Origin: Tannerella sp.
Lineage (GTDB): Bacteria > Bacteroidota > Bacteroidia > Bacteroidales > Tannerellaceae
Reading direction: 5' to 3'
DNA: 64,000 bases
Assembly (NCBI GenBank): GCA_031285565.1
Contig: JAITVY010000117.1
Location: forward strand, 1-64,000
Position numbers and translations under genes: made by a program. This document shows, piece after piece, positions 34,787 through 47,362 of this stretch. Each line of letters begins with the position of its first letter. The first letter of the stretch is position 1. Under the pieces are notes generated by a model. That model did no database searches and was not told where the DNA came from. It saw only the letters and a program-made list of their open reading frames with translations.

Positions 34787-36199
34787 ATGAGAACTGCAGA
34801 TTTTATTTATTTATCGGGAATACTTCTTCCTGTTTTTGTGGGATGTAAGGAGAAAAAAACATCTCCTGAAGAGTCAACCCCTCTGAATGTAATTTACATT
34901 CTGGCTGATGATCTGGGGTATGGTGATATCGGATGTTACGGACAATCTATCATAAAAACGCCTCATCTGGACCGGATGGCTACTGAGGGAATGCTTTTTA
35001 CACAGCACTATGCAGGATGTACAGTGAGTGCGCCTTCACGGGCTTCTTTAATGACCGGATTTCATACCGGACATACGCAAATTCGTGGAAATAAGGAGGT
35101 AAACCCCGAAGGGCAAACTCCAATGAAAGGAGATACCTATACATTAGCAAAATTATTTAAGAGTAAAAACTATGCTACAGGCATCTTTGGAAAATGGGGG
35201 TTAGGTTATCCTGGATCGGAATCGGAACCTAATGCGATGGGTTTTGATGAATTCTATGGATATAATTGTCAGCGGGAGGCACATTCCTATTATCCGGGTC
35301 ATTTATGGCATAACAGGGAGAAAGTTGAATTTCCGGAAAATGTTGACCCGGGGCGTCAGACGTATTCACATGATCTGATTCATCAGCAAGCCCTACAATT
35401 CATCCGGAATCAGAAAGATGCGCCTTTTTTTGCTATGCTGACGTATACGCTTCCTCATGCAGAACTTAATCTTCCACATGATTCCATATATCGGATGTAT
35501 GAAAATCAGTTTGAAGAGGCTCCTTACGACCAGTCCGGCAGTTATTTCCGTTCGGATAAGCCACGGGCATCGTTTGCAGCTATGGTTTCACAGTTGGATA
35601 TGTATGTGGGGGAGATTATGGATGAATTGAGAAGACAGGGACTGGATAAAAATACAATCATATTTTTTACGAGTGATAACGGGCCTCATCAGGAAGGAGG
35701 GGCTGACCCCGCATTTTTCAACAGTGGAGGTCCGTTGAAGGGAGTTAAGCGTGATTTGTATGAAGGAGGTATTCGGGTTCCGTTGCTCGTCTGGTCTCCC
35801 GGACATGTAAAAGCCGCTGTTGTCTCTGACCATGTTTCTGCATTTTGGGATATGATGCCGACATTTGCCGGGATGATAGGAGCCGAATTGTCCCAACCAA
35901 CTGATGGAATCTCTTTTTTGCCTACCTTGTTTGGAGAGGGTAATCAACAAACGCATGATTTCCTGTACTGGGAGTTTCACGAACAAGGGGGCCGTCAAGC
36001 CATCAGGAAAGACAACTGGAAGCTGATCCGACAAGGTATATCTGCAGAAGGTGGTACTTGGCTTGAGTTGTATGATTTAAATACAGATAAGCATGAAGAC
36101 ACTAACCTGGCGGAGGCAGAACCGGGAAAAGTAAAAGAATTAGCAGGGATAATGGATAATGCCCGTACTGAATCGGAACTTTTTAATTTTGGGAGGTAA
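34787..36199 (+). CDS. sulfatase 2, lipoprotein (serine-type)
   Basis: S1-type sulfatase of 470 residues with lipobox VFVGC (Cys20), so probably anchored to a membrane. Metal-site motif ILADDLGYGDIGCYG begins at 38; the maturation motif is S81-A-P-S-R, with formylglycine expected at Ser81, followed by ASLMTG. FGKWGLG takes the place of the more common GKWHLG, and FTSDNGPHQEGG holds the second metal-site segment. It starts 39 bases after the first sulfatase and is likely co-transcribed. It differs enough from its neighbours to suggest another sulfate position or sugar. Confidence 0.92.
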   Translation: MRTADFIYLSGILLPVFVGCKEKKTSPEESTPLNVIYILADDLGYGDIGCYGQSIIKTPHLDRMATEGMLFTQHYAGCTVSAPSRASLMTGFHTGHTQIRGNKEVNPEGQTPMKGDTYTLAKLFKSKNYATGIFGKWGLGYPGSESEPNAMGFDEFYGYNCQREAHSYYPGHLWHNREKVEFPENVDPGRQTYSHDLIHQQALQFIRNQKDAPFFAMLTYTLPHAELNLPHDSIYRMYENQFEEAPYDQSGSYFRSDKPRASFAAMVSQLDMYVGEIMDELRRQGLDKNTIIFFTSDNGPHQEGGADPAFFNSGGPLKGVKRDLYEGGIRVPLLVWSPGHVKAAVVSDHVSAFWDMMPTFAGMIGAELSQPTDGISFLPTLFGEGNQQTHDFLYWEFHEQGGRQAIRKDNWKLIRQGISAEGGTWLELYDLNTDKHEDTNLAEAEPGKVKELAGIMDNARTESELFNFGR

Positions 36200-36312
36200 G
36201 ACCCCCGGCCCCTAAAGGGGAAAAATAGACTCCAAACCCTTGGAGCGGTTTTAGAAGAAAGGGGAAGGAGATTTAATGCTGAAATCTTGAATATTAAATA
36301 TTTAATTTACAT
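36200..36312. other. spacer with short C/G hairpins
   Basis: Between sulfatases 2 and 3. It contains CCCCTAAAGGGG followed by AAAAA (36209-36225), which could form a weak hairpin. The purine/pyrimidine-skewed text resembles degraded intergenic repeat sequence rather than a gene. Confidence 0.35.
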
Positions 36313-37851
36313 ATGAAACAAAAAGTGATACTTGGAATAGGAACAACTATGCTTGTGGCCTGTTCCGGAAATGCAAAAAAAGCAACAGAAGAACCTGTTG
36401 CCGAAACGAAGCCAAATGTAATTATTATTCTGGCGGATGACATCGGATATGGAGATTTAGGTTTTAATGGTGAAAAAACAATCCGGACACCTAATGCCGA
36501 CCGGTTAGCTTCGCAAGGTATCCGGTTTACGGATGCACATGCTGTTGCCGCGACAAGTACTCCATCCCGCTATTCTTTATTAACCGGACACTATGCCTGG
36601 AGACGCAACGATACCGGAATTGCTGCCGGTGACGCAGGTATGATCATTCGTCCGGAGCAAACAACAATGGCAGATATGTTCCGGGATGCAGGTTATACGA
36701 CTGGCGCCGTAGGCAAATGGCACCTAGGATTGGGAGATACCCAGGGATCGCAGGACTGGAATGGATTTATTACTCCCGGACCTACGGATATAGGTTTTGA
36801 CTATTCGTATATAATGGCTGCAACGGGCGATCGCGTGCCATGTGTATATGTAGAAAACCAGCGGATTGTCAATCTTGACCCCAATGATCCGATTGAAGTC
36901 AGTTACAAAGAACCTTTTCCGGGTGAACCTTTAGGAAAAGATCATCCGGAATTATTGACAGTCTTAAAACCAAGCCTGAATCATGGTCATGATATGGCTA
37001 TTGTCAACGGAGTCTCACGCATCGGATATATGAAAGGTGGTAAGAGCGCTTTGTGGTTGGATGAAAATATCGCAGACAGTATTACCTATAAGGCCGTAAG
37101 GTTTATCGAGAATAATAAAGACAATCCGTTTTTCCTTTATTTTGCGACCAACGATATTCATGTACCTCGCGTACCGCATCCTCGTTTCGTAGGCTCTACA
37201 ACGATGGGAGCGCGTGGCGATGCGATTATGGAATTCGACTGGAGTGTCGGACAGATCCTGGAAACTCTTGACAGGTTGGGTTTAACTGAAAATACATTGA
37301 TCGTACTGACAAGTGATAATGGTCCGGTGGTAGATGATGGATATGCAGACAGGGCGGTTGAATTGTTAGGAGAACATCGTCCATGGGGAGATTTCCGCGG
37401 AGGAAAGTATAGCAGTTTTGAAGCCGGAACACGGGTCCCGTTTCTCGTAAGCTGGCCGGCACAAATAAAACCTGCAGTTTCGGACGCACTTGTTTCACAT
37501 ATAGATTTGTTTGCTTCATTTGCAGGATTGCTGGACCAGTCGTTGCCTGGAAATGTGGCGCCTGACAGCAGGAACCAATTGGATGCATTTACAGGAAAAA
37601 CAGTGGAGGGGCGCGATTATATTATTGAGCAAGCCGGTTCGCTGTCTGTTTCAACAGCAGAATGGAAATATATTTCTCCGAGTGACGGAGCGCCTTATAA
37701 TGCGTTGACCAATACCGAGATGGGGAATGATAAAGAGCCTCAGTTATATAATCTGAAACAAGATATCGGGGAAAAGAAAAACTTAGCTACAGAAAATCCT
37801 GAAAAAGTAAATGAATTAAAATCTGTTCTGGAAAAGGAACGTTCTAAATGA
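36313..37851 (+). CDS. sulfatase 3, lipoprotein (serine-type)
   Basis: S1-type arylsulfatase-like enzyme of 512 residues with lipobox MLVAC (Cys17). Metal-site motif ILADDIGYGDLGFNG near 39; the maturation motif is S82-T-P-S-R followed by YSLLTGHYAWRR. VGKWHLGLG near 133 and LTSDNGPVVDDGY near 335 complete the active site. A long insertion between GKWHLG and the DNGP motif (with GDRVPCVYVENQ) distinguishes it from sulfatases 1 and 2. Its stop overlaps the start of sulfatase 4 by four bases (ATGA), so the two are translationally coupled. Confidence 0.92.
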   Translation: MKQKVILGIGTTMLVACSGNAKKATEEPVAETKPNVIIILADDIGYGDLGFNGEKTIRTPNADRLASQGIRFTDAHAVAATSTPSRYSLLTGHYAWRRNDTGIAAGDAGMIIRPEQTTMADMFRDAGYTTGAVGKWHLGLGDTQGSQDWNGFITPGPTDIGFDYSYIMAATGDRVPCVYVENQRIVNLDPNDPIEVSYKEPFPGEPLGKDHPELLTVLKPSLNHGHDMAIVNGVSRIGYMKGGKSALWLDENIADSITYKAVRFIENNKDNPFFLYFATNDIHVPRVPHPRFVGSTTMGARGDAIMEFDWSVGQILETLDRLGLTENTLIVLTSDNGPVVDDGYADRAVELLGEHRPWGDFRGGKYSSFEAGTRVPFLVSWPAQIKPAVSDALVSHIDLFASFAGLLDQSLPGNVAPDSRNQLDAFTGKTVEGRDYIIEQAGSLSVSTAEWKYISPSDGAPYNALTNTEMGNDKEPQLYNLKQDIGEKKNLATENPEKVNELKSVLEKERSK

Positions 37852-39410
37852 AACGAAGAACTTTCTTAAAAACATCTCTTGGTACCGGATTGGGATTAAG
37901 TACCGGGACATTGTTATCCCAAACGGTATCCAGGGCAACTTCTGCCGGAAACGGAAAGAAGAAGCCCCATGTTATCTTTATAATGACTGACCAGCATCGT
38001 GCCGATGCATTGGGTTGTATGAGTAATAAAGCTGTTATTTCTCCTCATATTGACAAGCTGGCTAAGGAAGGTACATTGTTTATTTCGGGTTATTCTTCTT
38101 CACCAAGTAGTACACCGGCGCGAAGCGGTCTGTTGACAGGTCTTTCGCCATGGCATCATGGGATGTTAGGATATGGACAGGTCGCTAAGCAATATAAATA
38201 CGAAATGCCCCAAATGATGCGTAACCTGGGTTACTATACTTTTGGTATTGGTAAAATGCATTGGTTTCCACAAAAATCATTACACGGTTTTCATGCTACC
38301 CTGGTTGACGAGAGTGGGAGAGTGGAAAGTCCTGACTTTATCAGTGATTACCGGGAATGGTTTCAATTGCAGTCTCCGGGAGCAGATCCTGATTTGACAG
38401 GTATCGGATGGAACGATCATCGTGCAGGCATATATAAGCTTGACGAGAAGTTACACCCGACCACCTGGACAGGACAAAAGGCATGCGAATTAATTCGTAA
38501 TTATAAGGATGATAAACCTTTATTCCTAAAAGTGTCTTTCGCCCGTCCACATAGTCCATATGACCCGCCTGAACGTTATCTGAATATGTATAAAGATGTT
38601 GAGATTCCGGCGCCTTTTACCGGTGACTGGTGTGGAGATTTAAGTACCCCCTTGGATCCGGAAAAAGCTGCTCCTGATGCTGCTTTTGGGAATTTTGGAG
38701 CCGACTATGCCAAAGAATCACGGCGACATTATTATGCAAACGTCACATTTATAGATGACCAGATCGGTGAAATTATACGGACGTTGAAGGAAAAGGGTAT
38801 GTATGATGATTCAATCATCTGTTTTACTTCCGATCATGGGGACATGCTGGGCGACCATTATCACTGGCGAAAAACATATCCTTATGAAGGCTCAGCTGCT
38901 ATTCCTTATATCGTGAAATGGCCGGGAAACCTGCCAAGAGAAAAAAATACTTCTGTAATTAGTCAACCAGTAGAATTAAGGGATTTTCTTCCTACATTTA
39001 TCGATCTGGCAGGAGGAGAAGTTCCTCCTGATATGGATGGTATGTCTTTACGGAAGCTGGTTCAGGGAAAGCAGGATGAATGGAGAACTTATATTGATAT
39101 GGAACATGCAACCTGTTACCGGAATGAGAATTACTGGTGTGCATTAACAGACGGGAAAATAAAATATATCTGGAATTTTAATACAGGATCAGAACAGTTG
39201 TTTGATCTGGAGAAAGATCCCAAGGAACTTATAGAGTGCTCAAAAAATAAAAAATATGCAGTTACGATAGAGAAAATGCGTAAGGCTATGATTGAACATT
39301 TATCGGAACGGGGAGATGATTTTGTGAAAAATGGTCGGTTGGCAACCCGTATATCCACAATGTTATATAGCCCTTATTATCCGCAGATAAAAGACGTATC
39401 GAAAAGCTAA
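37848..39410 (+). CDS. sulfatase 4 with twin-arginine-like signal (serine-type)
   Basis: S1-type sulfatase of 520 residues. The N-terminus MKRRTFLKTS matches the twin-arginine export consensus, unlike the lipoprotein or Sec signals of the other three. Metal-site motif FIMTDQHRADALGC near 44; the maturation motif is S88-T-P-A-R followed by SGLLTG, again serine-type. FTSDHGDMLGDHYHWRK near 326 has a DHG variant of the usual DNG. It overlaps the preceding gene by 4 bases. If it is really exported folded by Tat, its formylglycine would be made in the cytosol before export, which fits radical SAM maturation. Confidence 0.9.
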   Translation: MKRRTFLKTSLGTGLGLSTGTLLSQTVSRATSAGNGKKKPHVIFIMTDQHRADALGCMSNKAVISPHIDKLAKEGTLFISGYSSSPSSTPARSGLLTGLSPWHHGMLGYGQVAKQYKYEMPQMMRNLGYYTFGIGKMHWFPQKSLHGFHATLVDESGRVESPDFISDYREWFQLQSPGADPDLTGIGWNDHRAGIYKLDEKLHPTTWTGQKACELIRNYKDDKPLFLKVSFARPHSPYDPPERYLNMYKDVEIPAPFTGDWCGDLSTPLDPEKAAPDAAFGNFGADYAKESRRHYYANVTFIDDQIGEIIRTLKEKGMYDDSIICFTSDHGDMLGDHYHWRKTYPYEGSAAIPYIVKWPGNLPREKNTSVISQPVELRDFLPTFIDLAGGEVPPDMDGMSLRKLVQGKQDEWRTYIDMEHATCYRNENYWCALTDGKIKYIWNFNTGSEQLFDLEKDPKELIECSKNKKYAVTIEKMRKAMIEHLSERGDDFVKNGRLATRISTMLYSPYYPQIKDVSKS

Positions 39411-40888: not shown

Positions 40889-41314
40889 ATGGATAAACCA
40901 ATAAACAGGAGGGACTTTTTGTACAAACTTGGTCTCAGGACTTCTTTGACAATAGCCGGTTTTTTTACGTTTGATAAACTATTGTCTGATCAGGGAGAAG
41001 ATATTTCTGAACTGGAAAACCAGTTCTCAGATATACCTTGTTTGGCTGCAGATGTGAGGAGAGACTACGAGAACGGACATATTGTTCTGTCGGGGCAAAG
41101 TTCGAAATGTTTTGCTAATGAAACCGGTGAGAAAATTATTGACTGGATGGATGGCAAAAACACGTTGCCGGATATTACTTCCAATCTTTCTGAATATTAC
41201 TCTATTGATAACACCGAATCGTTAGAAGCATCTGTAGCGACTTTCATTTGCCAGTTGGCTACAATGGGCTTTCTTACTTCACCTTTTTATGTTACTCTAT
41301 ATGAAAATTATTAA
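40889..41314 (+). CDS. PqqD-like peptide-binding protein with twin-arginine-like N-terminus
   Basis: A 141-residue protein. Residues about 55-132 fit the PqqD fold, the RiPP recognition element that holds leader peptides for modifying enzymes: CFANETGEKIIDWMDGKNTL, then ITSNLSEYYSID, then VATFICQLATMGFL. Unusually, the N-terminus is NRRDFLYKLGLRTSLTIAGFFTF (first residues 6-25), a twin-arginine-like motif followed by a hydrophobic stretch, which suggests membrane association or export. It is the first gene of a tight run and overlaps the radical SAM gene by 14 bases. Recognition of the Cys-rich protein two genes down is inferred. The PqqD fold is likely; its location in the cell is open. Confidence 0.75.
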   Translation: MDKPINRRDFLYKLGLRTSLTIAGFFTFDKLLSDQGEDISELENQFSDIPCLAADVRRDYENGHIVLSGQSSKCFANETGEKIIDWMDGKNTLPDITSNLSEYYSIDNTESLEASVATFICQLATMGFLTSPFYVTLYENY

Positions 41315-42662
41315 GAAACCAGCGGAAATAAATAATGAATTGTATGTCATCAACCGAGGTGATAATTCATTCATTCTTTACTCTCCACTAAATAAAAAAG
41401 TGGGTGTTATTAATGGTTCGGGCGCTAATACTATAACCAAATATTTTAGTGAAGAATCATTGGGTAATGAAGAAGAATTATTTATTGAAAACCTGTATCA
41501 AAATGATTTTCTCAATGAGACTGCACTTGAAAAACCGGTATTCCCTTCTACATTCGAATTTTTGCCCACTGAAGTAACCCTGTTTGCAACCAGTAGATGT
41601 AATCTCCGTTGTCGGTATTGTTACGCTGATGCAGGGAAGAAAAGTGAAGATATGTCATTGGAAACGGCCAAAGCGGCAATTGATTTGGTCGCATATAATG
41701 CCGGGTTGGCGGGATTGTCACATTTTGTTGTTGGTTTTCATGGAGGTGGAGAGCCTACTGTAGCCTGGGATCTGGTGTCGGCTGCTACAGAATATGCTCA
41801 TGAAGTAGCTCTTCAAAAGGGTTTGGATGTTGAAATTTTTGCGGCTACCAATGGTACATTTAATAAAAAACAAAGGGAGTTTATTCTGAAATATTTTACC
41901 AATCTCAATATATCAATTGATGGTCCTGCTGATGTTCAGGATTATAACAGGCCAATGATCAATGGTTCCGGATCTTTTCAGGTTATAAAGGATAATTTGA
42001 AGTTTTTTGATGAACATGGTTTTGATTATGGAGTCCGATCCACTATTACGGAAAAAGATGTACACCGGATAGAAGAAATTGTTGAATGGTTCAAATCAGA
42101 GTTTAATATTTCGTTTTTACACTTAGAGCCTGTTTGGTTATGTGGTAGATGTATGACAAGCGGAGAAGTACCTCCAACTGACATTGATTTTATCAGTAAC
42201 TTTACGAAAGCTGCCGATAAAGCCGAAGCGATAGGTGTAAATCTAATATACAGTGGCTTGCGGTTGGATTCATTAATCTCTAAATTTTGCGCTGCAGCCG
42301 GCGATGGTTTTAATGTGCTGCCTGATGGGACAGTGACTTCGTGTTATGAGATTACGGAAAATGATAGTCCTAAAGCGGAACTTTTTCATTATGGACGATA
42401 TGATTCCGGTAGTAAACAGTTTATATTTGACAAAAATAAAATAAAACGTCTACAAAAATATTCTGTAGAGAATATTGCTCATTGCCAGGATTGTTTTTGT
42501 AAATGGCATTGTGCCGGCGATTGTGTTTCGAAGGTTTTTGATATGAGTCAATCATTTGAACATCATGGAAGTCCGCGCTGTTACCTGAACAGGCAGCTTA
42601 CAATCTGGCAACTCGAAAAATTATTAGCAAAACAAAATACAAATGTCTATGAAACCAGATGA
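41301..42662 (+). CDS. radical SAM/SPASM peptide-modifying enzyme
   Basis: A 453-residue radical SAM enzyme. Residues 1 to about 75 resemble a PqqD-like winged domain (YVINRGDNSFILYSPLNKK). The cluster motif CNLRCRYC binds [4Fe-4S] and SAM through C100, C104 and C107. GFHGGGEPT follows near 147. The C-terminal SPASM/twitch region is cysteine-rich: C395, C398, C400, C404, C408 and C427 in CQDCFCKWHCAGDC and beyond, for auxiliary clusters. Such enzymes form thioether or C-C links in peptides, or mature sulfatases. The neighbours (PqqD-like, Cys-rich small protein) favour peptide modification. The start could be the ATG at 41289. It overlaps both adjacent genes. Confidence 0.85.
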   Translation: MKIIKKPAEINNELYVINRGDNSFILYSPLNKKVGVINGSGANTITKYFSEESLGNEEELFIENLYQNDFLNETALEKPVFPSTFEFLPTEVTLFATSRCNLRCRYCYADAGKKSEDMSLETAKAAIDLVAYNAGLAGLSHFVVGFHGGGEPTVAWDLVSAATEYAHEVALQKGLDVEIFAATNGTFNKKQREFILKYFTNLNISIDGPADVQDYNRPMINGSGSFQVIKDNLKFFDEHGFDYGVRSTITEKDVHRIEEIVEWFKSEFNISFLHLEPVWLCGRCMTSGEVPPTDIDFISNFTKAADKAEAIGVNLIYSGLRLDSLISKFCAAAGDGFNVLPDGTVTSCYEITENDSPKAELFHYGRYDSGSKQFIFDKNKIKRLQKYSVENIAHCQDCFCKWHCAGDCVSKVFDMSQSFEHHGSPRCYLNRQLTIWQLEKLLAKQNTNVYETR

Positions 42663-43059
42663 TAAACCTAAAAAAATAGAGGATGCTTTTGAAAATCCTA
42701 AGTTGTATGTAATTGTTGGTGGCGAAGCTTTTCCGCGAACCGGACTGGAAACTGCTTTTATTGATTATTCAGATATTGATTTGGAATCAACGAATGAAGG
42801 TACCACTTTATCGGAAGTGACCGTTAGTTCTTCGTCAACTGTAACTGGTGGCACTCATAAAACAGGTTCTTCCCGTATTGTGCAGGTACAGGATACTATA
42901 AAAACAGTAAAACAGATAAAAATAGTAGGGTGTGCCTGTAATACTGTAGGAAGGTCGATTTGTATCTGCAACAAAGTAAGGGTCTGCGGTTGTGTTGGAT
43001 ATACTCAACCATCTACAAGAACAGTTACGACGGGATGTAGCTGTGCTCCGGTGCATTAA
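42643..43059 (+). CDS. candidate precursor peptide with four Cys-x-Cys motifs
   Basis: A 138-residue protein that I do not recognise from any family. The first 90 residues lack cysteine: an acidic, lysine-rich start, a VIVGGEAFP segment near 23-31, and a Ser/Thr-rich stretch. The last 43 residues hold all eight cysteines as four CxC pairs: C97/C99, C107/C109, C115/C117, C132/C134. This leader-plus-Cys-rich-core layout, and overlap with a radical SAM/SPASM gene by 20 bases, suggest a RiPP precursor (sactipeptide or ranthipeptide-like thioethers are possible). An ATG at 42649 is an alternative start. A metal-binding protein is the main alternative. Confidence 0.65.
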   Translation: MSMKPDDKPKKIEDAFENPKLYVIVGGEAFPRTGLETAFIDYSDIDLESTNEGTTLSEVTVSSSSTVTGGTHKTGSSRIVQVQDTIKTVKQIKIVGCACNTVGRSICICNKVRVCGCVGYTQPSTRTVTTGCSCAPVH

Positions 43060-43085
43060 TGTAAAAAATAATATATCGTATGAAA
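43056..43085. repeat. 30-base direct repeat, copy 1
   Basis: Begins with the stop region of the Cys-rich gene (TTAATG) and ends in ATGAAA. An identical 30-base copy lies at 43149-43178, where its ATGAAA is the start of the next gene. Copy 1's ATG opens an 11-codon frame (43080-43115). Confidence 0.9.
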
Positions 43086-43148
43086 CGAAGCATGAGAACA
43101 AGATTTTCACCATAAGAGAATGATATATATGCTGAGTCCTATACATCC

Positions 43149-43178
43149 TTAATGTAAAAAATAATATATCGTATGAAA
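43149..43178. repeat. 30-base direct repeat, copy 2
   Basis: Identical to 43056-43085 and 93 bases from it. It contains the start codon of the helical-repeat gene at 43173. The pair looks like the footprint of a tandem duplication or of a deletion between repeats. Confidence 0.9.
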
Positions 43179-44024
43179 TCAATTTATTTTATCATATCGG
43201 TCGCTGTGCTTTTTCTTTGGAACATGCCTGCAACAGCACAGAAAATGGAATCCAAAGAGCGACAAATGGATCTACGCGATCCGCATGCATACAATACGGC
43301 TGCTGAAATGCTTATGTGTGCTGATACGTTACCATATACGGAGGCAATAGATATCATACTGGACCTTATATCCGATAATATCAACGCAGGAATGTTAATT
43401 GAAGACGAACAAATATGGAAGTTACTTAAGAAACTGGAACCGTACCGGATGACAGAACAAGTACAGATGGCCGTAAATGTATGGATTGATAAAACACTGG
43501 AAAATATTGCTGAAAAGCAGAAGGATAAGATGGTGCCAGCCAAACATATGCAATCTATGTCTATCGCATATAAAGAAAAGGATTTTGAAAAAGCGGTGAA
43601 TATAGCCTGCGATCTTCTGTTGGATATCCCCAATACACTTGATACAAGGAATAATTTGGCTTTAGCGCTTATGCATCTGAATTATGATTTGTGTGCCCAA
43701 ATAGAATTGGAGATTATTCGTAGAATGAGTGATCAGTATGCTCCGGGATTGATTAACCTGACGGTTTTGAATGAACGTATGAACAGAAGTGACTATGCAA
43801 GAGGACTTTCCAGAGAACTTCTACTTTCTTCCAGAGAAGAATCTTCAGATGTACAACTGGCACGTTTTAATGCAGCATGGTATTTGAATGAAGAGGGTGA
43901 TTATAAGGAGGCAGATTTAGTCCTTAACAAGATAAAGGAACCGGCTTATAATAAGATAAAAAAATATACTGATTTGAAAGCGGCAAATAAGAAACAGTTG
44001 AAGGAAGTTGGAAAGGTAAAATAA
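43173..44024 (+). CDS. secreted helical-repeat (TPR-like) protein of the peptide cluster
   Basis: A 283-residue exported protein: signal peptide 1-22 (ends ATAQ), then almost all alpha-helix. Segments such as MQSMSIAYKEKDFEKAVNIACDLL, NTLDTRNNLALALMHLNYDL and ARFNAAWYLNEEGDYKEADLVL have the spacing of tetratricopeptide repeats (first residues of each quoted only as landmarks). TPR proteins act as binding scaffolds; here the partner could be the modified peptide or an envelope enzyme. It lies 5 bases before the B12-type radical SAM gene. No enzymatic motif is seen. Confidence 0.7.
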   Translation: MKSIYFIISVAVLFLWNMPATAQKMESKERQMDLRDPHAYNTAAEMLMCADTLPYTEAIDIILDLISDNINAGMLIEDEQIWKLLKKLEPYRMTEQVQMAVNVWIDKTLENIAEKQKDKMVPAKHMQSMSIAYKEKDFEKAVNIACDLLLDIPNTLDTRNNLALALMHLNYDLCAQIELEIIRRMSDQYAPGLINLTVLNERMNRSDYARGLSRELLLSSREESSDVQLARFNAAWYLNEEGDYKEADLVLNKIKEPAYNKIKKYTDLKAANKKQLKEVGKVK

Positions 44025-44028
44025 ACGT

Positions 44029-45576
44029 ATGAATTCAATCAAGACCATGCGCTGGGTTTTAATCCGTCCGCTGAATCGAAGCCTATTCTATGATCCGGAA
44101 ATACAAGAGCCTCTAGGCCTGGAGTACCTTTCTGCTACTTTAAAAAAAAGCGGTTGTCAGGTTCTCTTATTGGATAGTGCATTAAATAATTTGCATGACA
44201 TTAAACTAGCCCGTAGGGTAGCTTCTTTTCAGCCGGATGCAATTGGCTTTTCCATAACTACCGACCGTGAACTGGAATCGGTGAATGCAATCTATACTAC
44301 ATGTAAGGAGATTTTGCATGATAAACAGCTGTTCTGGATTGCCGGAGGTAATTATGCTACTTCTGAATTTAACAATGCATGTAAAGTGCTACCTACTGAG
44401 ATGCACATCCTTAAGTATGAAGGAGAAGTCTCAATAAAAAAAATCTGTTCGCTATGGATGGATGGATTAATTGATACTTTGCCCAGGGTGATTCATGGAG
44501 AACCTGCTGTATTAGATGAACTTCCATTCCCCGAAAGGCCTTATCATCATTATGTGCTCAATTTTGGATTTGCTTTTAATGTTCAGGGATCCCGTGGATG
44601 TTGCAGCGCCTGTAAATACTGTGCATCTAAAGGAATGCGTGGTGGTAAATTATATTCATGGAGGGGACGTAGCCCGGAGAATATGGTCAGTGAACTGGCT
44701 TACCTGTACCAGAATTATGGAGCACGTTCTTTTAATTTTGTCGATGAAGATTTTCTGGGTCCTCCGGCCGGTGCACTCGAACGTTCGGAACGTTTCATGA
44801 ACGAGATAAAAAAGCACAATCTGAAAATTACAATCGGTATTCAGGTGAGACCTAATTCCCTGTCTGAAAAGATAATCGACAATCTGTATGCGTCCGGATT
44901 AACGTATGTGTTTATGGGCATAGAATCGGATAATCCGGAAGATTTTAAAAAATGGGGAAGGAGTTTTTGTAAGGATACATGGCAACTGGTGGATTGTTTG
45001 CAGCAGAGAGGAATCGAAATAAATGCGGGTACTTTATTGTTTCATCCTGACTGTACGTTTGAAGGTATTCGGAATTTTTCCGTTCGGTTACGTCAATATG
45101 GTTTGCTCAACAGCCGGACAGCTACTAACCGCCTGGATGCAATGCCCGGATCTTTTTTTTATGAACAATACTTCTCCGAACATCCCGAAGACAAGACACA
45201 GGGAGTTATTCGTTTGCCATTCAAAAATCCGGATATAGAACCTTTTTTTCAAATTGTTCGTGAAGTGTTGGCTCCCATCGAAATACCTTCTATGCATGCA
45301 TTATGTATTATGCCAATCATTCAAACAGGTAGAGTCTTTGAAAATCTGGAAGAAAAGTATCAACTTTTAAAATCAATTAATTCCGATTGTGATGATCAGG
45401 TATCTTCTTGTTTCTTTTCTGTACTTGAGATGTTTGAAAATGATTGTTATTCCAGGCCTGAAATAGATAGTATGATAAACAATAACATCGAATTCGGTAA
45501 GATTACAATGGATCGTTTAATAAAAAGCGGCTTTCATGAAAACCTATCGCATAGTAGCACCAATTTGTTCGGTTGA
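44029..45576 (+). CDS. B12-binding-type radical SAM enzyme
   Basis: A 515-residue protein with the class B layout. The N-terminal Rossmann domain (about 8-140: EPLGLEYLSATLKKSGCQVL, then LLLDSALNN) has the cobalamin-binding fold, but the DxHxxG loop is not seen, so cobalamin would bind without the lower histidine, as in several family members, or not at all. The radical SAM motif GCCSACKYC gives C191, C195 and C198. FNFVDEDFLGP near 238 and FMGIESDNPE near 307 fit the core fold. Members methylate unactivated carbons or do ring chemistry. It overlaps the next gene by 41 bases. Target unknown; the Cys-rich peptide is the natural candidate. Confidence 0.85.
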   Translation: MNSIKTMRWVLIRPLNRSLFYDPEIQEPLGLEYLSATLKKSGCQVLLLDSALNNLHDIKLARRVASFQPDAIGFSITTDRELESVNAIYTTCKEILHDKQLFWIAGGNYATSEFNNACKVLPTEMHILKYEGEVSIKKICSLWMDGLIDTLPRVIHGEPAVLDELPFPERPYHHYVLNFGFAFNVQGSRGCCSACKYCASKGMRGGKLYSWRGRSPENMVSELAYLYQNYGARSFNFVDEDFLGPPAGALERSERFMNEIKKHNLKITIGIQVRPNSLSEKIIDNLYASGLTYVFMGIESDNPEDFKKWGRSFCKDTWQLVDCLQQRGIEINAGTLLFHPDCTFEGIRNFSVRLRQYGLLNSRTATNRLDAMPGSFFYEQYFSEHPEDKTQGVIRLPFKNPDIEPFFQIVREVLAPIEIPSMHALCIMPIIQTGRVFENLEEKYQLLKSINSDCDDQVSSCFFSVLEMFENDCYSRPEIDSMINNNIEFGKITMDRLIKSGFHENLSHSSTNLFG

Positions 45577-46510
45577 TGAAATTGAGCCTGTATTAGAGGC
45601 CGGGGCTTCCGAGGTTTATTTTGGAATTATGCCTGAAAAATGGGAGAGGGAATATGGAAGTATGGATTTTATTACCCGGCGTCAGAACAGACAGGCGCAT
45701 ATTGCAAGTTACGATGATTTAAAGGAGATCGTTCATATAGTCAACGATAGAAATGCGACAGCTACTTTGGTACTGAATGCAGGTTATTCAAGCAATCAAA
45801 TCCCATTTGTTTTTGAGATTTTGAAACAATGGGAAACTTGCGGGGGACATGCTGTTATGGTTTACGATATCGAAATTCTGCTTTGGCTGAATAGCACAGG
45901 TAGCAAACTGGAACGACAACTTTCTGTTATGTCCGGAGTCTTTAACAGTCATAGTATAGATTTTTTTAAGCAATTCAATATATCCAGGGTTGTTCTTCCC
46001 AGAGAATTATCACTGAGTGAAATAGATGAATTTGTAAGAAGCGCGGGTCAGGAGGTTGGCTATGAGAGTATTGTGATGTTTCAAAAATGCGAATTCATAG
46101 ATGCCTTCTGCCAATTTTATCATGCAGTCTGTTATCAACCCTATGTTGTTGAAAACTGTTCGGGTTTATCCGGAAAATATCTACCGGTTATTGAAAGCTA
46201 CGATCCTTATTATGAGGGTCATGGATGTCAAATGGATTTTTTGTGTAAAAACCGGAAGATTAAACATCTTGAAAATAATGATTTTCAGACCCCTTATTGT
46301 GCGGCTTGTTCATTGGATTTTTTGCTGAAAAAAGGTGTCAATAATTTAAAAATTGCAGGTAGGGGCTATCCGGTAAAACTGATTGCGGATACCGTACGAT
46401 TTATAAAGAGAACAATAGAACGACCAGCTACACAATCTGATATGATTAAATCTGATTATCTGTTAACATTCGGTTGTACTTGTCAGTTAATGAATTGTTA
46501 TTATCAATAG
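45536..46510 (+). CDS. U32-family protein, UbiU-like
   Basis: A 324-residue member of the so-called peptidase U32 family. The start RIVAPICSVDEIEPVLEAGA and ASEVYFGIMPE fit the TIM-barrel N-terminus, and FNSHSIDFFKQFNISRVVLP with RELSLSEID is the conserved middle. Cysteines cluster in the second half (C185, C192, C199, C208, C231, C237, C255, C258), enough for an iron-sulfur cluster as in UbiU, TrhP and RlhA, which hydroxylate substrates without O2. Its stop abuts the start of a second U32-like gene, so the two probably form a heteromer like UbiU-UbiV. O2-independent hydroxylation of the peptide is inferred, not shown. Confidence 0.75.
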   Translation: MKTYRIVAPICSVDEIEPVLEAGASEVYFGIMPEKWEREYGSMDFITRRQNRQAHIASYDDLKEIVHIVNDRNATATLVLNAGYSSNQIPFVFEILKQWETCGGHAVMVYDIEILLWLNSTGSKLERQLSVMSGVFNSHSIDFFKQFNISRVVLPRELSLSEIDEFVRSAGQEVGYESIVMFQKCEFIDAFCQFYHAVCYQPYVVENCSGLSGKYLPVIESYDPYYEGHGCQMDFLCKNRKIKHLENNDFQTPYCAACSLDFLLKKGVNNLKIAGRGYPVKLIADTVRFIKRTIERPATQSDMIKSDYLLTFGCTCQLMNCYYQ

Positions 46511-47362
46511 ATGAAGAATCCGGTTGAGATGGAAATCGCTTATATGGTTGATCTCAGGAAAGGTAATAAACTTGAGATACCGCCCTGTAAACGAATCTAT
46601 TTCGGACATGAAACCTGTGAAAAATTGTTACCTGTATGGGATGATTGTCAGCCACTAATGGATATTTCCTTTAAACAAAACCTTGAATTGACTTTTATAA
46701 CTCCTTTTTTAACAGACAGAGGGTTCGAGAAAACCACGAAGTTTTTGGAACAATTAAAAACGGTAAAACCCACGATAGAGATTGTAACTTCAGACTGGGG
46801 GCTACTGAATTGGGTAGTGAATCAGAAATCATTAATTCCGGTTATCGGACGATTCCAGATAGGTCAACAACTTGATTTCCGCTTAATGAGGTTGGGAAAG
46901 GCAGATAGAGAAGAGCGGACTATAATGGTGGATGGGAAATTTTTCAGATTGTTACCTAAGGAACAAACAATGGCGTTGAAAGATCATCTGTCGTCTTGTA
47001 CGTTATTAAAAGAAAATACGATGGAAATGTTCGCACAATTGTCAATTAATCGATTTGAGGTAAGTAATACCTTTCAGTCTGTGCAACTTGTCAATAAAGA
47101 AGGGCTTCACTACTCTTTGCATGTCCCTTATGTTCCGCTTACAATTTTCAGATCCTGTCCGGACAATTTAAATTTTAAAGAAAAAAGAAGCTGTAATATC
47201 AACCGGTGTCTGAACAACCGGTCTAAATGGCTCAATGAAACCTATGGGTGCGATATTTACTGTATTGATAATGCTCTTTATTACAGTAATACCTGTTTCT
47301 ATGGGCATACAAAATCAAATCCGGGTATTGATCGGCTCGTTTTTCATGAAACATTTAATTAA
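46511..47362 (+). CDS. U32-like partner protein, UbiV-like
   Basis: A 283-residue protein starting at the base after the previous stop. The middle part (IEIVTSDWGLLNWVVNQKSL, then PVIGRFQIGQQLDFRLMR) matches the U32 family, where a short barrel segment is followed by a conserved arginine region; FEVSNTFQ resembles the position that reads as ELS in homologues. The C-terminal third is rich in cysteine (RSCPDN, then KRSCNINRCLNN, CDIYC and NTCFYG), as in UbiV. Alone I would call it only weakly; its adjacency to the clearer U32 protein raises confidence. It is the last gene of the run. Confidence 0.6.
   Translation: MKNPVEMEIAYMVDLRKGNKLEIPPCKRIYFGHETCEKLLPVWDDCQPLMDISFKQNLELTFITPFLTDRGFEKTTKFLEQLKTVKPTIEIVTSDWGLLNWVVNQKSLIPVIGRFQIGQQLDFRLMRLGKADREERTIMVDGKFFRLLPKEQTMALKDHLSSCTLLKENTMEMFAQLSINRFEVSNTFQSVQLVNKEGLHYSLHVPYVPLTIFRSCPDNLNFKEKRSCNINRCLNNRSKWLNETYGCDIYCIDNALYYSNTCFYGHTKSNPGIDRLVFHETFN

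What the first reader, a model, noticed from the sequence alone, without database searches (positions are those of the whole stretch)
40889..47362. Candidate new RiPP-type system: PqqD-like + radical SAM/SPASM + CxC peptide + TPR + B12-type radical SAM + two U32 proteins
Seven plus-strand genes run with overlaps or short gaps (largest gap 113 bases, inside a repeat). Known family roles: PqqD-like domains bind leader peptides; SPASM radical SAM enzymes form thioether or C-C links; B12-type radical SAM enzymes mostly methylate; UbiU/UbiV-type U32 pairs hydroxylate without O2. One small Cys-rich protein lies among them. I know of no described peptide pathway with this combination. No dedicated peptidase or ABC exporter is seen, so maturation and export would be unusual.
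Basis: partly seen in the sequence, partly recalled or inferred. Interest (0 to 1): 0.92.

Follow-up and report, generated by a model that had tools for sequence, protein, structure and literature searches.

The report
Tat-linked cysteine-repeat modified-peptide system
A compact gene set, found in several very different groups of bacteria, that appears to chemically modify a small cysteine-rich protein inside the cell and then send it out through the pathway normally used for folded proteins; this would be a new way of making and exporting a modified peptide.

Summary
In detail: seven plus-strand genes (A PqqD-like, B SPASM-type radical SAM, C CxC protein, D exported TPR-like, E B12-type radical SAM, F and G U32-type) at 40889-47362. 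The same genes in the same order occur in four family genomes and in Verrucomicrobiota, Nitrospirae and delta-proteobacterial MAGs. Two Coriobacterial genomes hold A-B-C-D without E and without close F or G relatives, so E-F-G are optional. No listed NCBIfam model reaches its cut-off.
By my own rule A begins with a twin-arginine (Tat-like) signal in 18 of 18 copies, against 0 of 58 other PqqD proteins. In one Clostridiales genome TatA and two TatC genes directly precede A. In a sister lineage 13 of 14 CxC precursors carry the signal themselves, some on WD40 proteins; 0 of 19 in this lineage do. Curated Tat models, however, match only 2 of 18 A proteins.
Best reading: a radical-SAM RiPP pathway whose matured CxC protein leaves through Tat, here as passenger of its leader-binding protein. 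Chemistry and co-export are inferred.

The parts
40889..41314 (+). Gene A: PqqD-like (RiPP recognition element type) protein, 141 aa, with N-terminal twin-arginine segment NRRDFL followed by a short hydrophobic stretch
   Evidence: PF05402 32.3 bits over cut-off 23.4; RR invariant in 18 sequences; own Tat rule met in 18 of 18; not matched by curated Tat models
41301..42662 (+). Gene B: SPASM-type radical SAM enzyme (probable start 41301, 453 aa)
   Evidence: PF04055 61.0 bits; best NCBIfam PapB 134.1 bits, below its cut-off of 340; invariant C99-C103-C106 and C-terminal Cys set in 12 sequences
42649..43059 (+). Gene C: substrate protein, 136 aa: leader-like N terminus (PKLYVIVGGEAFPRTGLETAF) and four CxC motifs ending GCSCAPVH
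   Evidence: Start by comparison with relatives; 161 relatives at E<=1e-3, 120 of the 120 listed hold CxCxPV in the last 25 residues; no Pfam or NCBIfam family
43173..44024 (+). Gene D: exported TPR-like protein with N-terminal signal peptide
   Evidence: N terminus read by eye; relatives show signal peptides, lipobox-like sites or transmembrane anchors by eye and some TPR matches
44047..45576 (+). Gene E: B12-type radical SAM enzyme (ORF opens at 44029; relatives start at MRWVLIRP, 44047)
   Evidence: PF04055 44.8 bits; B12-binding 31.6 of 32.1; C191, C195, C198 invariant in 10 sequences
45536..46510 (+). Gene F: U32 protein, UbiU-like
   Evidence: PF01136 77.2 bits; NF047963 UbiU 69.0 bits, cut-off 440; seven invariant Cys in 9 sequences
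46511..47362 (+). Gene G: divergent U32 partner, UbiV-like; fused to F in L010
   Evidence: hhalign F vs G probability 90.8; AlphaFold model and Foldseek; fusion 642 aa in L010
43056..43085 (+). Direct repeat copy 1 (30 nt) at the end of C and in the C-D gap, contains an ATG
43149..43178 (+). Direct repeat copy 2 (30 nt), contains the start codon of D

Best explanation
This is a RiPP-type maturation and export operon for CxC-repeat proteins. Protein A (PqqD-like) binds the N-terminal leader of C and presents it to B, which modifies the C-[ST]-C-x-x-[VYH] repeats, most likely with thioether cross-links. In this branch E (B12-type methyl or C-C chemistry) and the F/G pair (oxygen-independent hydroxylation) add optional further changes. 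The matured C has no export signal of its own. It leaves the cytoplasm bound to A, whose twin-arginine signal takes the A-C complex through the Tat translocase (hitch-hiker export), and it is held at the outer face of the membrane together with the exported TPR-like protein D. The likely role is a membrane-tethered thiol-rich metal- or redox-binding element; this last step is the weakest. Shown by sequence: operon conservation, the optional status of E-F-G, the RR segments, the Tat genes beside A in one genome, and the placement of Tat signals on the precursor in a sister lineage. Inferred: every chemical step, leader binding, co-export and function.
For: Conserved order A-G in four family genomes and three other phyla. 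RR plus hydrophobic stretch in 18 of 18 A proteins versus 0 of 58 other PqqD-family proteins from Bacteroidota (30, 28; my own rule). RR are two of seven invariant columns of A. TatA and two TatC-family genes end 49 bases before A in L020, and those two are the only TatC matches in that genome. In the sister lineage 13 of 14 precursors carry RR signals of their own, 9 of 14 with a lipobox-like site, while 0 of 19 precursors of the first lineage do. A Caballeronia sp. NK8 plasmid copy has B plus a precursor with its own RR signal directly before the CxC motifs. D has export-type N termini by eye. C is predicted disordered, with its best-scored part a short hairpin in the leader. B is nearest to thioether-forming maturases.
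Against: Curated Tat models match only 2 of 18 A proteins even at E<=1 (TIGR01409; PF10518) and not the window's A, whose hydrophobic stretch is short (about 11 residues); they match 8 of 11 sister-lineage and NK8 precursors at the same threshold. The signal is not strictly on one side: in the sister locus L145 both the precursor and the PqqD-like protein meet my rule. TatC is present in 114 of 123 genomes of the family, so its presence in the window's genome says nothing. 2 of 13 system-bearing genomes show no TatC (one is 58% complete, the other of unknown completeness). Tat genes lie in 1 of 33 loci only. L194 has a CxC precursor with neither a Tat signal nor a detectable A. No binding, chemistry or export was measured.
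Confidence: 0.55

Rival explanations
1. A is Tat-exported and works outside the cytoplasm (a periplasmic receptor or anchor), but the modified peptide reaches it by another route; there is no co-export.
For: Lipobox-like sites follow the RR signal in two Coriobacterial A proteins (L021, L023), so A itself is probably anchored outside. D also looks exported. In L145 both the PqqD-like protein and the precursor meet the Tat rule, so the PqqD-like protein may be exported for its own sake.
Against: C has no Tat signal in 19 of 19 loci, and the recurring genes A-G include no other exporter; not every flanking ORF was annotated. In the sister lineage the precursor itself carries the Tat signal, which points to Tat for the cargo.
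Confidence: 0.2
2. The RR segment of A is a hydrophobic docking helix and no export signal; the product acts in the cytoplasm, for instance as an Fe-S or metal-binding protein.
For: Curated Tat models miss most A proteins. Two sister-lineage PqqD-like proteins (L144, L196) have RR-x-F without a long enough hydrophobic core.
Against: Tat genes beside A in L020, lipobox-like sites in L021 and L023, and RR signals, many of lipoprotein type, on the sister precursors.
Confidence: 0.12
3. Protein-derived cofactor maturation, as in quinohemoprotein amine dehydrogenase: C is a cross-linked subunit of an exported enzyme and the F/G pair replaces the flavin hydroxylase.
For: Cys-rich substrate, a related radical SAM enzyme (TIGR03906, 90.7 bits, cut-off 453), hydroxylase-type genes and export. 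The analogy to QhpD/QhpG rests on a search listing and abstract start (PMC7876137) and on recall.
Against: The recurring genes A-G hold no obvious catalytic subunit; D is TPR-like. Two genomes have the core but no E and only weak U32 hits. CxC number varies from 2 to 12, unlike a fixed active-site subunit.
Confidence: 0.1
4. A secreted antimicrobial or signalling peptide of ordinary RiPP type.
For: Patchy spread: 5 of 123 genomes in the family, none of the others listed in the window's own genus.
Against: The recurring genes include no evident immunity, ABC exporter or leader peptidase gene; WD40 and S74 domains on sister precursors suggest proteins, not small diffusible peptides.
Confidence: 0.07

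Closest known systems
Ranthipeptides / SCIFF and PapB-type radical SAM thioether maturation
   Same: B scores best against PapB (134.1 bits) and the SCIFF maturase (108.6 bits); solved relative 5wgg (129.1 bits; recalled to be the SCIFF maturase CteB); Cys-rich substrate with leader.
   Different: B is far below the curated cut-offs (340 and 425). Substrates are CxC repeats with conserved ends (CxCxPV or HYWxP). The leader binder carries an RR segment; extra E, F, G.
Bufferins and other MNIO-modified RiPPs
   Same: Exported Cys-rich RiPP precursors, some with predicted lipoprotein signals, with an RRE-type partner protein (PMC12452194, passages read).
   Different: [quoted passage not shown] Here the enzymes are radical SAM and the signal is Tat-like, on the RRE-type partner or on the precursor. 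'Twin-arginine' does not occur in the main text of two MNIO papers (PMC12452194, PMC12636315).
Quinohemoprotein amine dehydrogenase gamma-subunit maturation
   Same: Radical SAM cross-linking of a Cys-rich protein, a hydroxylase, and export (search listing and abstract start of PMC7876137; rest recalled).
   Different: No evident catalytic partner subunit among the recurring genes; CxC number varies.
UbiU/UbiV-type U32 pairs
   Same: F resembles UbiU (NF047963, 69.0 bits); G is a divergent U32 partner; fused in L010.
   Different: Below the UbiU cut-off of 440; sits beside a peptide substrate rather than quinone genes.
Tat hitch-hiker export (for example PaoABC)
   Same: A partner without a signal crosses with a signal-bearing partner (PMC4273604, abstract start in listing).
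   Different: Here the signal-bearing partner would be a RiPP leader-binding protein.
GeoRSP/geopeptide systems (NCBIfam)
   Same: Radical SAM plus PqqD family set; weak score for L020 A (TIGR04302, 17.7 of 100).
   Different: All listed scores far below the curated cut-offs.

Membership tests
RiPP pathway (general) | Gene-encoded precursor beside its modifying enzyme | tested here: met
   C next to B in 19 of 19 loci; the loci were found through B or G, so this is a one-way test
RiPP pathway (general) | Leader-binding RRE/PqqD-type domain | tested here: met
   PqqD model matched at E<=1 in 17 of 18 A proteins; the window's A is over the Pfam cut-off. Binding itself not tested
RiPP pathway (general) | Post-translational modification of the precursor | not testable with these tools
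   needs mass spectrometry
RiPP pathway (general) | Leader removal by a dedicated peptidase | tested here: inconclusive
   none among the recurring genes A-G; not every flanking ORF was annotated, and host peptidases may serve
Ranthipeptide maturases (PapB, SCIFF) | Score over the curated family cut-off | tested here: not met
   134.1 of 340 and 108.6 of 425
Ranthipeptide maturases (PapB, SCIFF) | Thioether to a non-alpha carbon | not testable with these tools
   chemistry unknown
Anaerobic sulfatase maturases | TIGR03942 cut-off | tested here: not met
   64.9 of 349.45, despite three sulfatase-like ORFs upstream in the window (by eye)
UbiU/UbiV | NF047963 UbiU cut-off | tested here: not met
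   F 69.0 of 440; G no match
U32 fold (G) | Homology or fold match to U32 | tested here: met
   hhalign F vs G 90.8%; highest TM-score among the 50 listed PDB chains to U32 5d88, which is tenth by E-value
Tat substrates (A) | Twin-arginine motif followed by an uncharged hydrophobic stretch near the N terminus | tested here: met
   18 of 18 by my own rule; 0 of 58 controls (30, 28)
Tat substrates (A) | Match to curated Tat models | tested here: inconclusive
   2 of 18 at E<=1 in each of NCBIfam and Pfam; 8 of 11 for sister-lineage and NK8 precursors
Bufferins (MNIO RiPPs) | MNIO (DUF692) enzyme | tested here: not met
   no MNIO match listed for the seven proteins
PQQ biosynthesis PqqD | TIGR03859 cut-off | tested here: not met
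   29.1 of 46

The most novel reading that the evidence does not exclude
A widespread, unnamed RiPP class in which the leader-recognition protein doubles as the Tat export ticket: the radical-SAM-matured CxC protein is exported as its passenger, and the Tat signal has moved between leader binder and precursor during evolution (with L145, where both carry it, as a possible intermediate), in one branch onto WD40 proteins that carry the modified CxC tail. It would be a RiPP route through Tat, which none of my paper searches showed, and would tie peptide maturation to Tat folding control.
Probability: 0.45. Interest if true: 0.9.

Novelty: new variant of a known kind. Interest (0 to 1): 0.8.

Why it matters
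RiPP export is thought to run mainly through dedicated exporters (recalled) and, rarely, Sec: a 2025 paper calls Sec signals on RiPP precursors a rare feature (PMC12452194, passages read). A Tat route would mean the peptide crosses the membrane already modified and folded or bound, which would explain how radical SAM, B12 and hydroxylase chemistry can be finished inside before export. It also gives an unnamed family of at least 549 radical SAM proteins a substrate, a proposed path and a testable export signal. The small version on a plasmid of Caballeronia sp. NK8 makes the question easy to test.

Tried and rejected
Rejected: sulfatase maturase (scores); anti-phage defence (only generic viperin-type matches, 42.1 and 28.2 bits, and one weak match of E); phage cargo (no viral contigs relative of F; no phage record for the NK8 B protein at 1e-40).

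Led nowhere: PDB sequence searches with F and G profiles gave no meaningful hit; the viral structure library for G gave a chitinase and weak matches; AlphaFold of C is low confidence (pLDDT 53), so no fold of the CxC region is claimed. TatC presence as supporting evidence in the window's family was dropped, because 114 of 123 genomes have TatC.

Rows and limits: L016 is the contig of L008 and was not counted twice. In one search, 120 of the 161 C proteins (those listed) were examined. In one search only 7,996 candidates were scored, so 549 is a lower bound. The 18 A, 19 C and 14 sister precursors are those of the loci I fetched, not a random sample, and the profiles used were built from part of the same loci. 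One search scanned 11 proteins: 10 of the 14 sister precursors plus the NK8 one.

Corrected on review: the Tat control grew from 30 to all 58 other matches; 'never on both sides' was wrong (L145 has both); flanks of L008 and L011 are shared; the C-to-B test is one-way. I left the odds as they were: the larger control and the lost exclusivity pull in opposite directions.
Full report
WHAT IS THERE. Seven plus-strand genes occupy 40889-47362. A (40889-41314) is PqqD-like; B (41301-42662) a SPASM-type radical SAM enzyme; C (42649-43059) a 136-residue protein with four CxC motifs; D (43173-44024) an exported TPR-like protein; E (44047-45576) a B12-type radical SAM enzyme; F (45536-46510) a UbiU-like U32 protein; G (46511-47362) a divergent U32 protein.

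IT IS A UNIT. Searching the family with G gave 5 of 123 genomes, the window's included, and 2 of 393 in the order: the window itself and G441, which has two F/G-like pairs alone. In the four other family genomes all seven genes are present in the same order; in one (L010) F and G are fused into a single 642-residue protein. By eye their flanks differ from the window's, though L008 and L011 share a downstream flank. A scan of named genomes with B found the same seven genes in a Verrucomicrobiota (L017), a Nitrospirae (L018) and a delta-proteobacterial MAG (L019), and variants in Clostridiales (L020), Coriobacteriia (L021-L023) and Planctomycetota (L024). Whole-genome searches with B at 1e-70 gave 13 of 246 genomes in the class of L023 (five of them sister-lineage), 1 of 245 in the class of L020 (itself), 4 of 257 in the class of L019 (itself and three sister-lineage) and 6 of 387 in the phylum of L017 (itself and five sister-lineage). 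At least 549 B-like proteins exist at E<=1e-90 and 161 C-like proteins at E<=1e-3. No listed NCBIfam model reaches its cut-off for the window's seven proteins or for the B and C relatives tested.

CORE AND OPTIONAL PARTS. Among 19 loci found through B or G (W, L008-L011, L017-L024, L132-L137): B, C and D are found in 19 of 19; A in 18 of 19 (the L024 contig ends before it); E in 16 of 19 fetched stretches (in L134 it lies about 10 kb away); F in 16 of 19; G in 12 of 19 by profile, three of them fused to F (two of these weak, 29.3 and 16.2 bits). L021 and L023 lack E, F and G in the fetched stretch. Their genomes, of unknown completeness, have no E at 1e-30 and only weak U32 hits (best 92.9 and 67.5 bits, against 392.7 for L020's F). 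So A-B-C-D is the core, and E, F and G are optional tailoring.

THE SUBSTRATE. C has a leader-like N terminus (for example EDPKLFVVIG...FPRTGLE or LPKPQIEIIVDG...FKPGMKTYF) and a C-terminal run of CxC motifs. Of 120 listed relatives, 120 hold CxCxPV within the last 25 residues; CxC number is 2 to 12; the commonest spacing of motifs is 6, and the unit reads C-[ST]-C-[DVENQ]-[SPTG]-[VYH]. AlphaFold finds C mostly disordered, with its best-scored part a short hairpin in the leader, as expected of a RiPP precursor.

THE EXPORT SIGNAL THAT WAS MISSED. The two arginines are among seven invariant columns in an alignment of 32% mean identity. In L021 and L023 a lipobox-like site follows. Against this, curated Tat models match only 2 of 18 A proteins even at E<=1, and the window's own signal is short; the call 'Tat-like' is therefore mine and not a library's.

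TAT GENES BESIDE A. In the Clostridiales locus L020, a TatA and two TatC-family genes directly precede A. They are the only TatC matches in that genome. Among 33 loci this is the only one with Tat genes (phmmer). Of 13 system-bearing genomes 11 have TatC, but so have 114 of 123 genomes of the window's family, so presence alone is not evidence.

A SISTER LINEAGE WITH THE SIGNAL ON THE PRECURSOR. More distant B relatives (305-461 bits) sit beside CxC proteins that carry the RR signal themselves: 13 of 14 precursors in 13 loci (L138-L145, L193, L195 with two, L196, L197; the exception is L194). A curated Tat model matches 8 of 11 proteins scanned at E<=1, one of the 11 being the NK8 precursor. 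Their N termini start with a similar leader by eye (EEPKVFRI, EQPEIYGI) followed by the RR signal, 9 of 14 have a lipobox-like site, and seven carry a WD40 propeller between signal and CxC tail (Pfam for L144, L145, L193 and L196; the two of L195 and that of L197 by eye); L193 also has a Peptidase_S74 domain. None of the 19 C proteins of the first set has such a signal. Of three PqqD-like proteins seen in the sister lineage (L144 and L145 by weak profile hits, L196 by eye only), all keep RR-x-[FY] at the N terminus; L144 and L196 fail the rule, L145 meets it. So the signal is usually on the leader binder or on the precursor, and in L145 on both. A named plasmid of Caballeronia sp. NK8 carries a small version: B plus one protein in which an RR signal is followed by three CxC motifs and a DUF1344-like stretch (21.6 of 23.1 bits); no A was detected in that stretch.

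HOW IT MOST LIKELY WORKS. Established for the families involved (recalled): PqqD-type domains bind leaders; SPASM enzymes near PapB and SCIFF maturases make thioethers; B12-type radical SAM enzymes often methylate; UbiU/UbiV-type U32 pairs hydroxylate without oxygen; Tat exports folded proteins and can carry passengers. Put together: A binds the leader of C, B modifies the CxC repeats, E and F/G add optional changes, and A then carries the finished C through Tat to the outer face of the membrane, where D is probably also found. In the sister lineage the precursor has its own ticket. Function is the weakest point: a tethered, Cys-dense, exported element most resembles metal-binding bufferins (PMC12452194, passages read), but no metal binding was tested.

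PHYLOGENY. A tree of 46 B sequences puts the 32 family members together (94/96) apart from other SPASM enzymes, with three lineages: the window's (99/100), the Clostridia-Coriobacteria one (96/80), and the sister lineage including L024 (84/87). Outgroup rows are short, so the root is unsure.

LITERATURE. Searches for radical SAM with U32 and RiPP, with twin-arginine and RRE or precursor peptide, UbiU/UbiV with peptides, GeoRSP and PqqD/SPASM, and CxC/WD40/ranthipeptide listed no paper that by title or abstract start describes this system; only open-licence papers are held, lists were cut, and few papers were opened. In a survey of Bacteroidales RiPP clusters (PMC10352776, passages) 'U32' and 'twin' do not occur; two RRE papers contain no 'twin-arginine' (PMC12710340 and PMC7470986).

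Noticed in passing
window 43056-43085 and 43149-43178: A perfect 30-nt direct repeat, spacing 93, each copy with an ATG; the second holds D's start codon, so the translation start of D was probably duplicated.
   Followed up: partly
L014 8246-12414 (G441): Two tandem F/G-like U32 pairs, without a radical SAM or CxC gene evident in the listed ORFs close by, in a genome of another family of the order.
   Followed up: partly
L193 9489-11204: A Tat-signal WD40 protein with a CVCIPV motif followed by a Peptidase_S74 (endosialidase chaperone) domain: a possible self-processing precursor.
   Followed up: no
L024 1986-3365: An additional radical SAM gene between C and E in the Planctomycetota variant.
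   Followed up: no
L144 6699-9431: A 910-residue fusion of a SPASM-like domain with a HemN/HutW-like radical SAM domain next to the CxC cluster.
   Followed up: no
L145 12842-14161 and 14667-16184: Both the PqqD-like protein and the WD40-CxC precursor meet the Tat rule: the only locus seen with the signal on both.
   Followed up: partly
L198 9815-11799: Small version (B plus RR-signal CxC protein with DUF1344-like tail) on a 1.68-Mb plasmid of Caballeronia sp. NK8; the gene table used has no gene there.
   Followed up: partly
window 34787-39410: Three sulfatase-like ORFs in a row upstream of the operon (by eye); B is nevertheless not a sulfatase maturase by score.
   Followed up: partly
L009 3381-4535: The D relative has an extra C-terminal stretch with about three transmembrane segments (by eye), suggesting that D can be membrane-anchored.
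   Followed up: no
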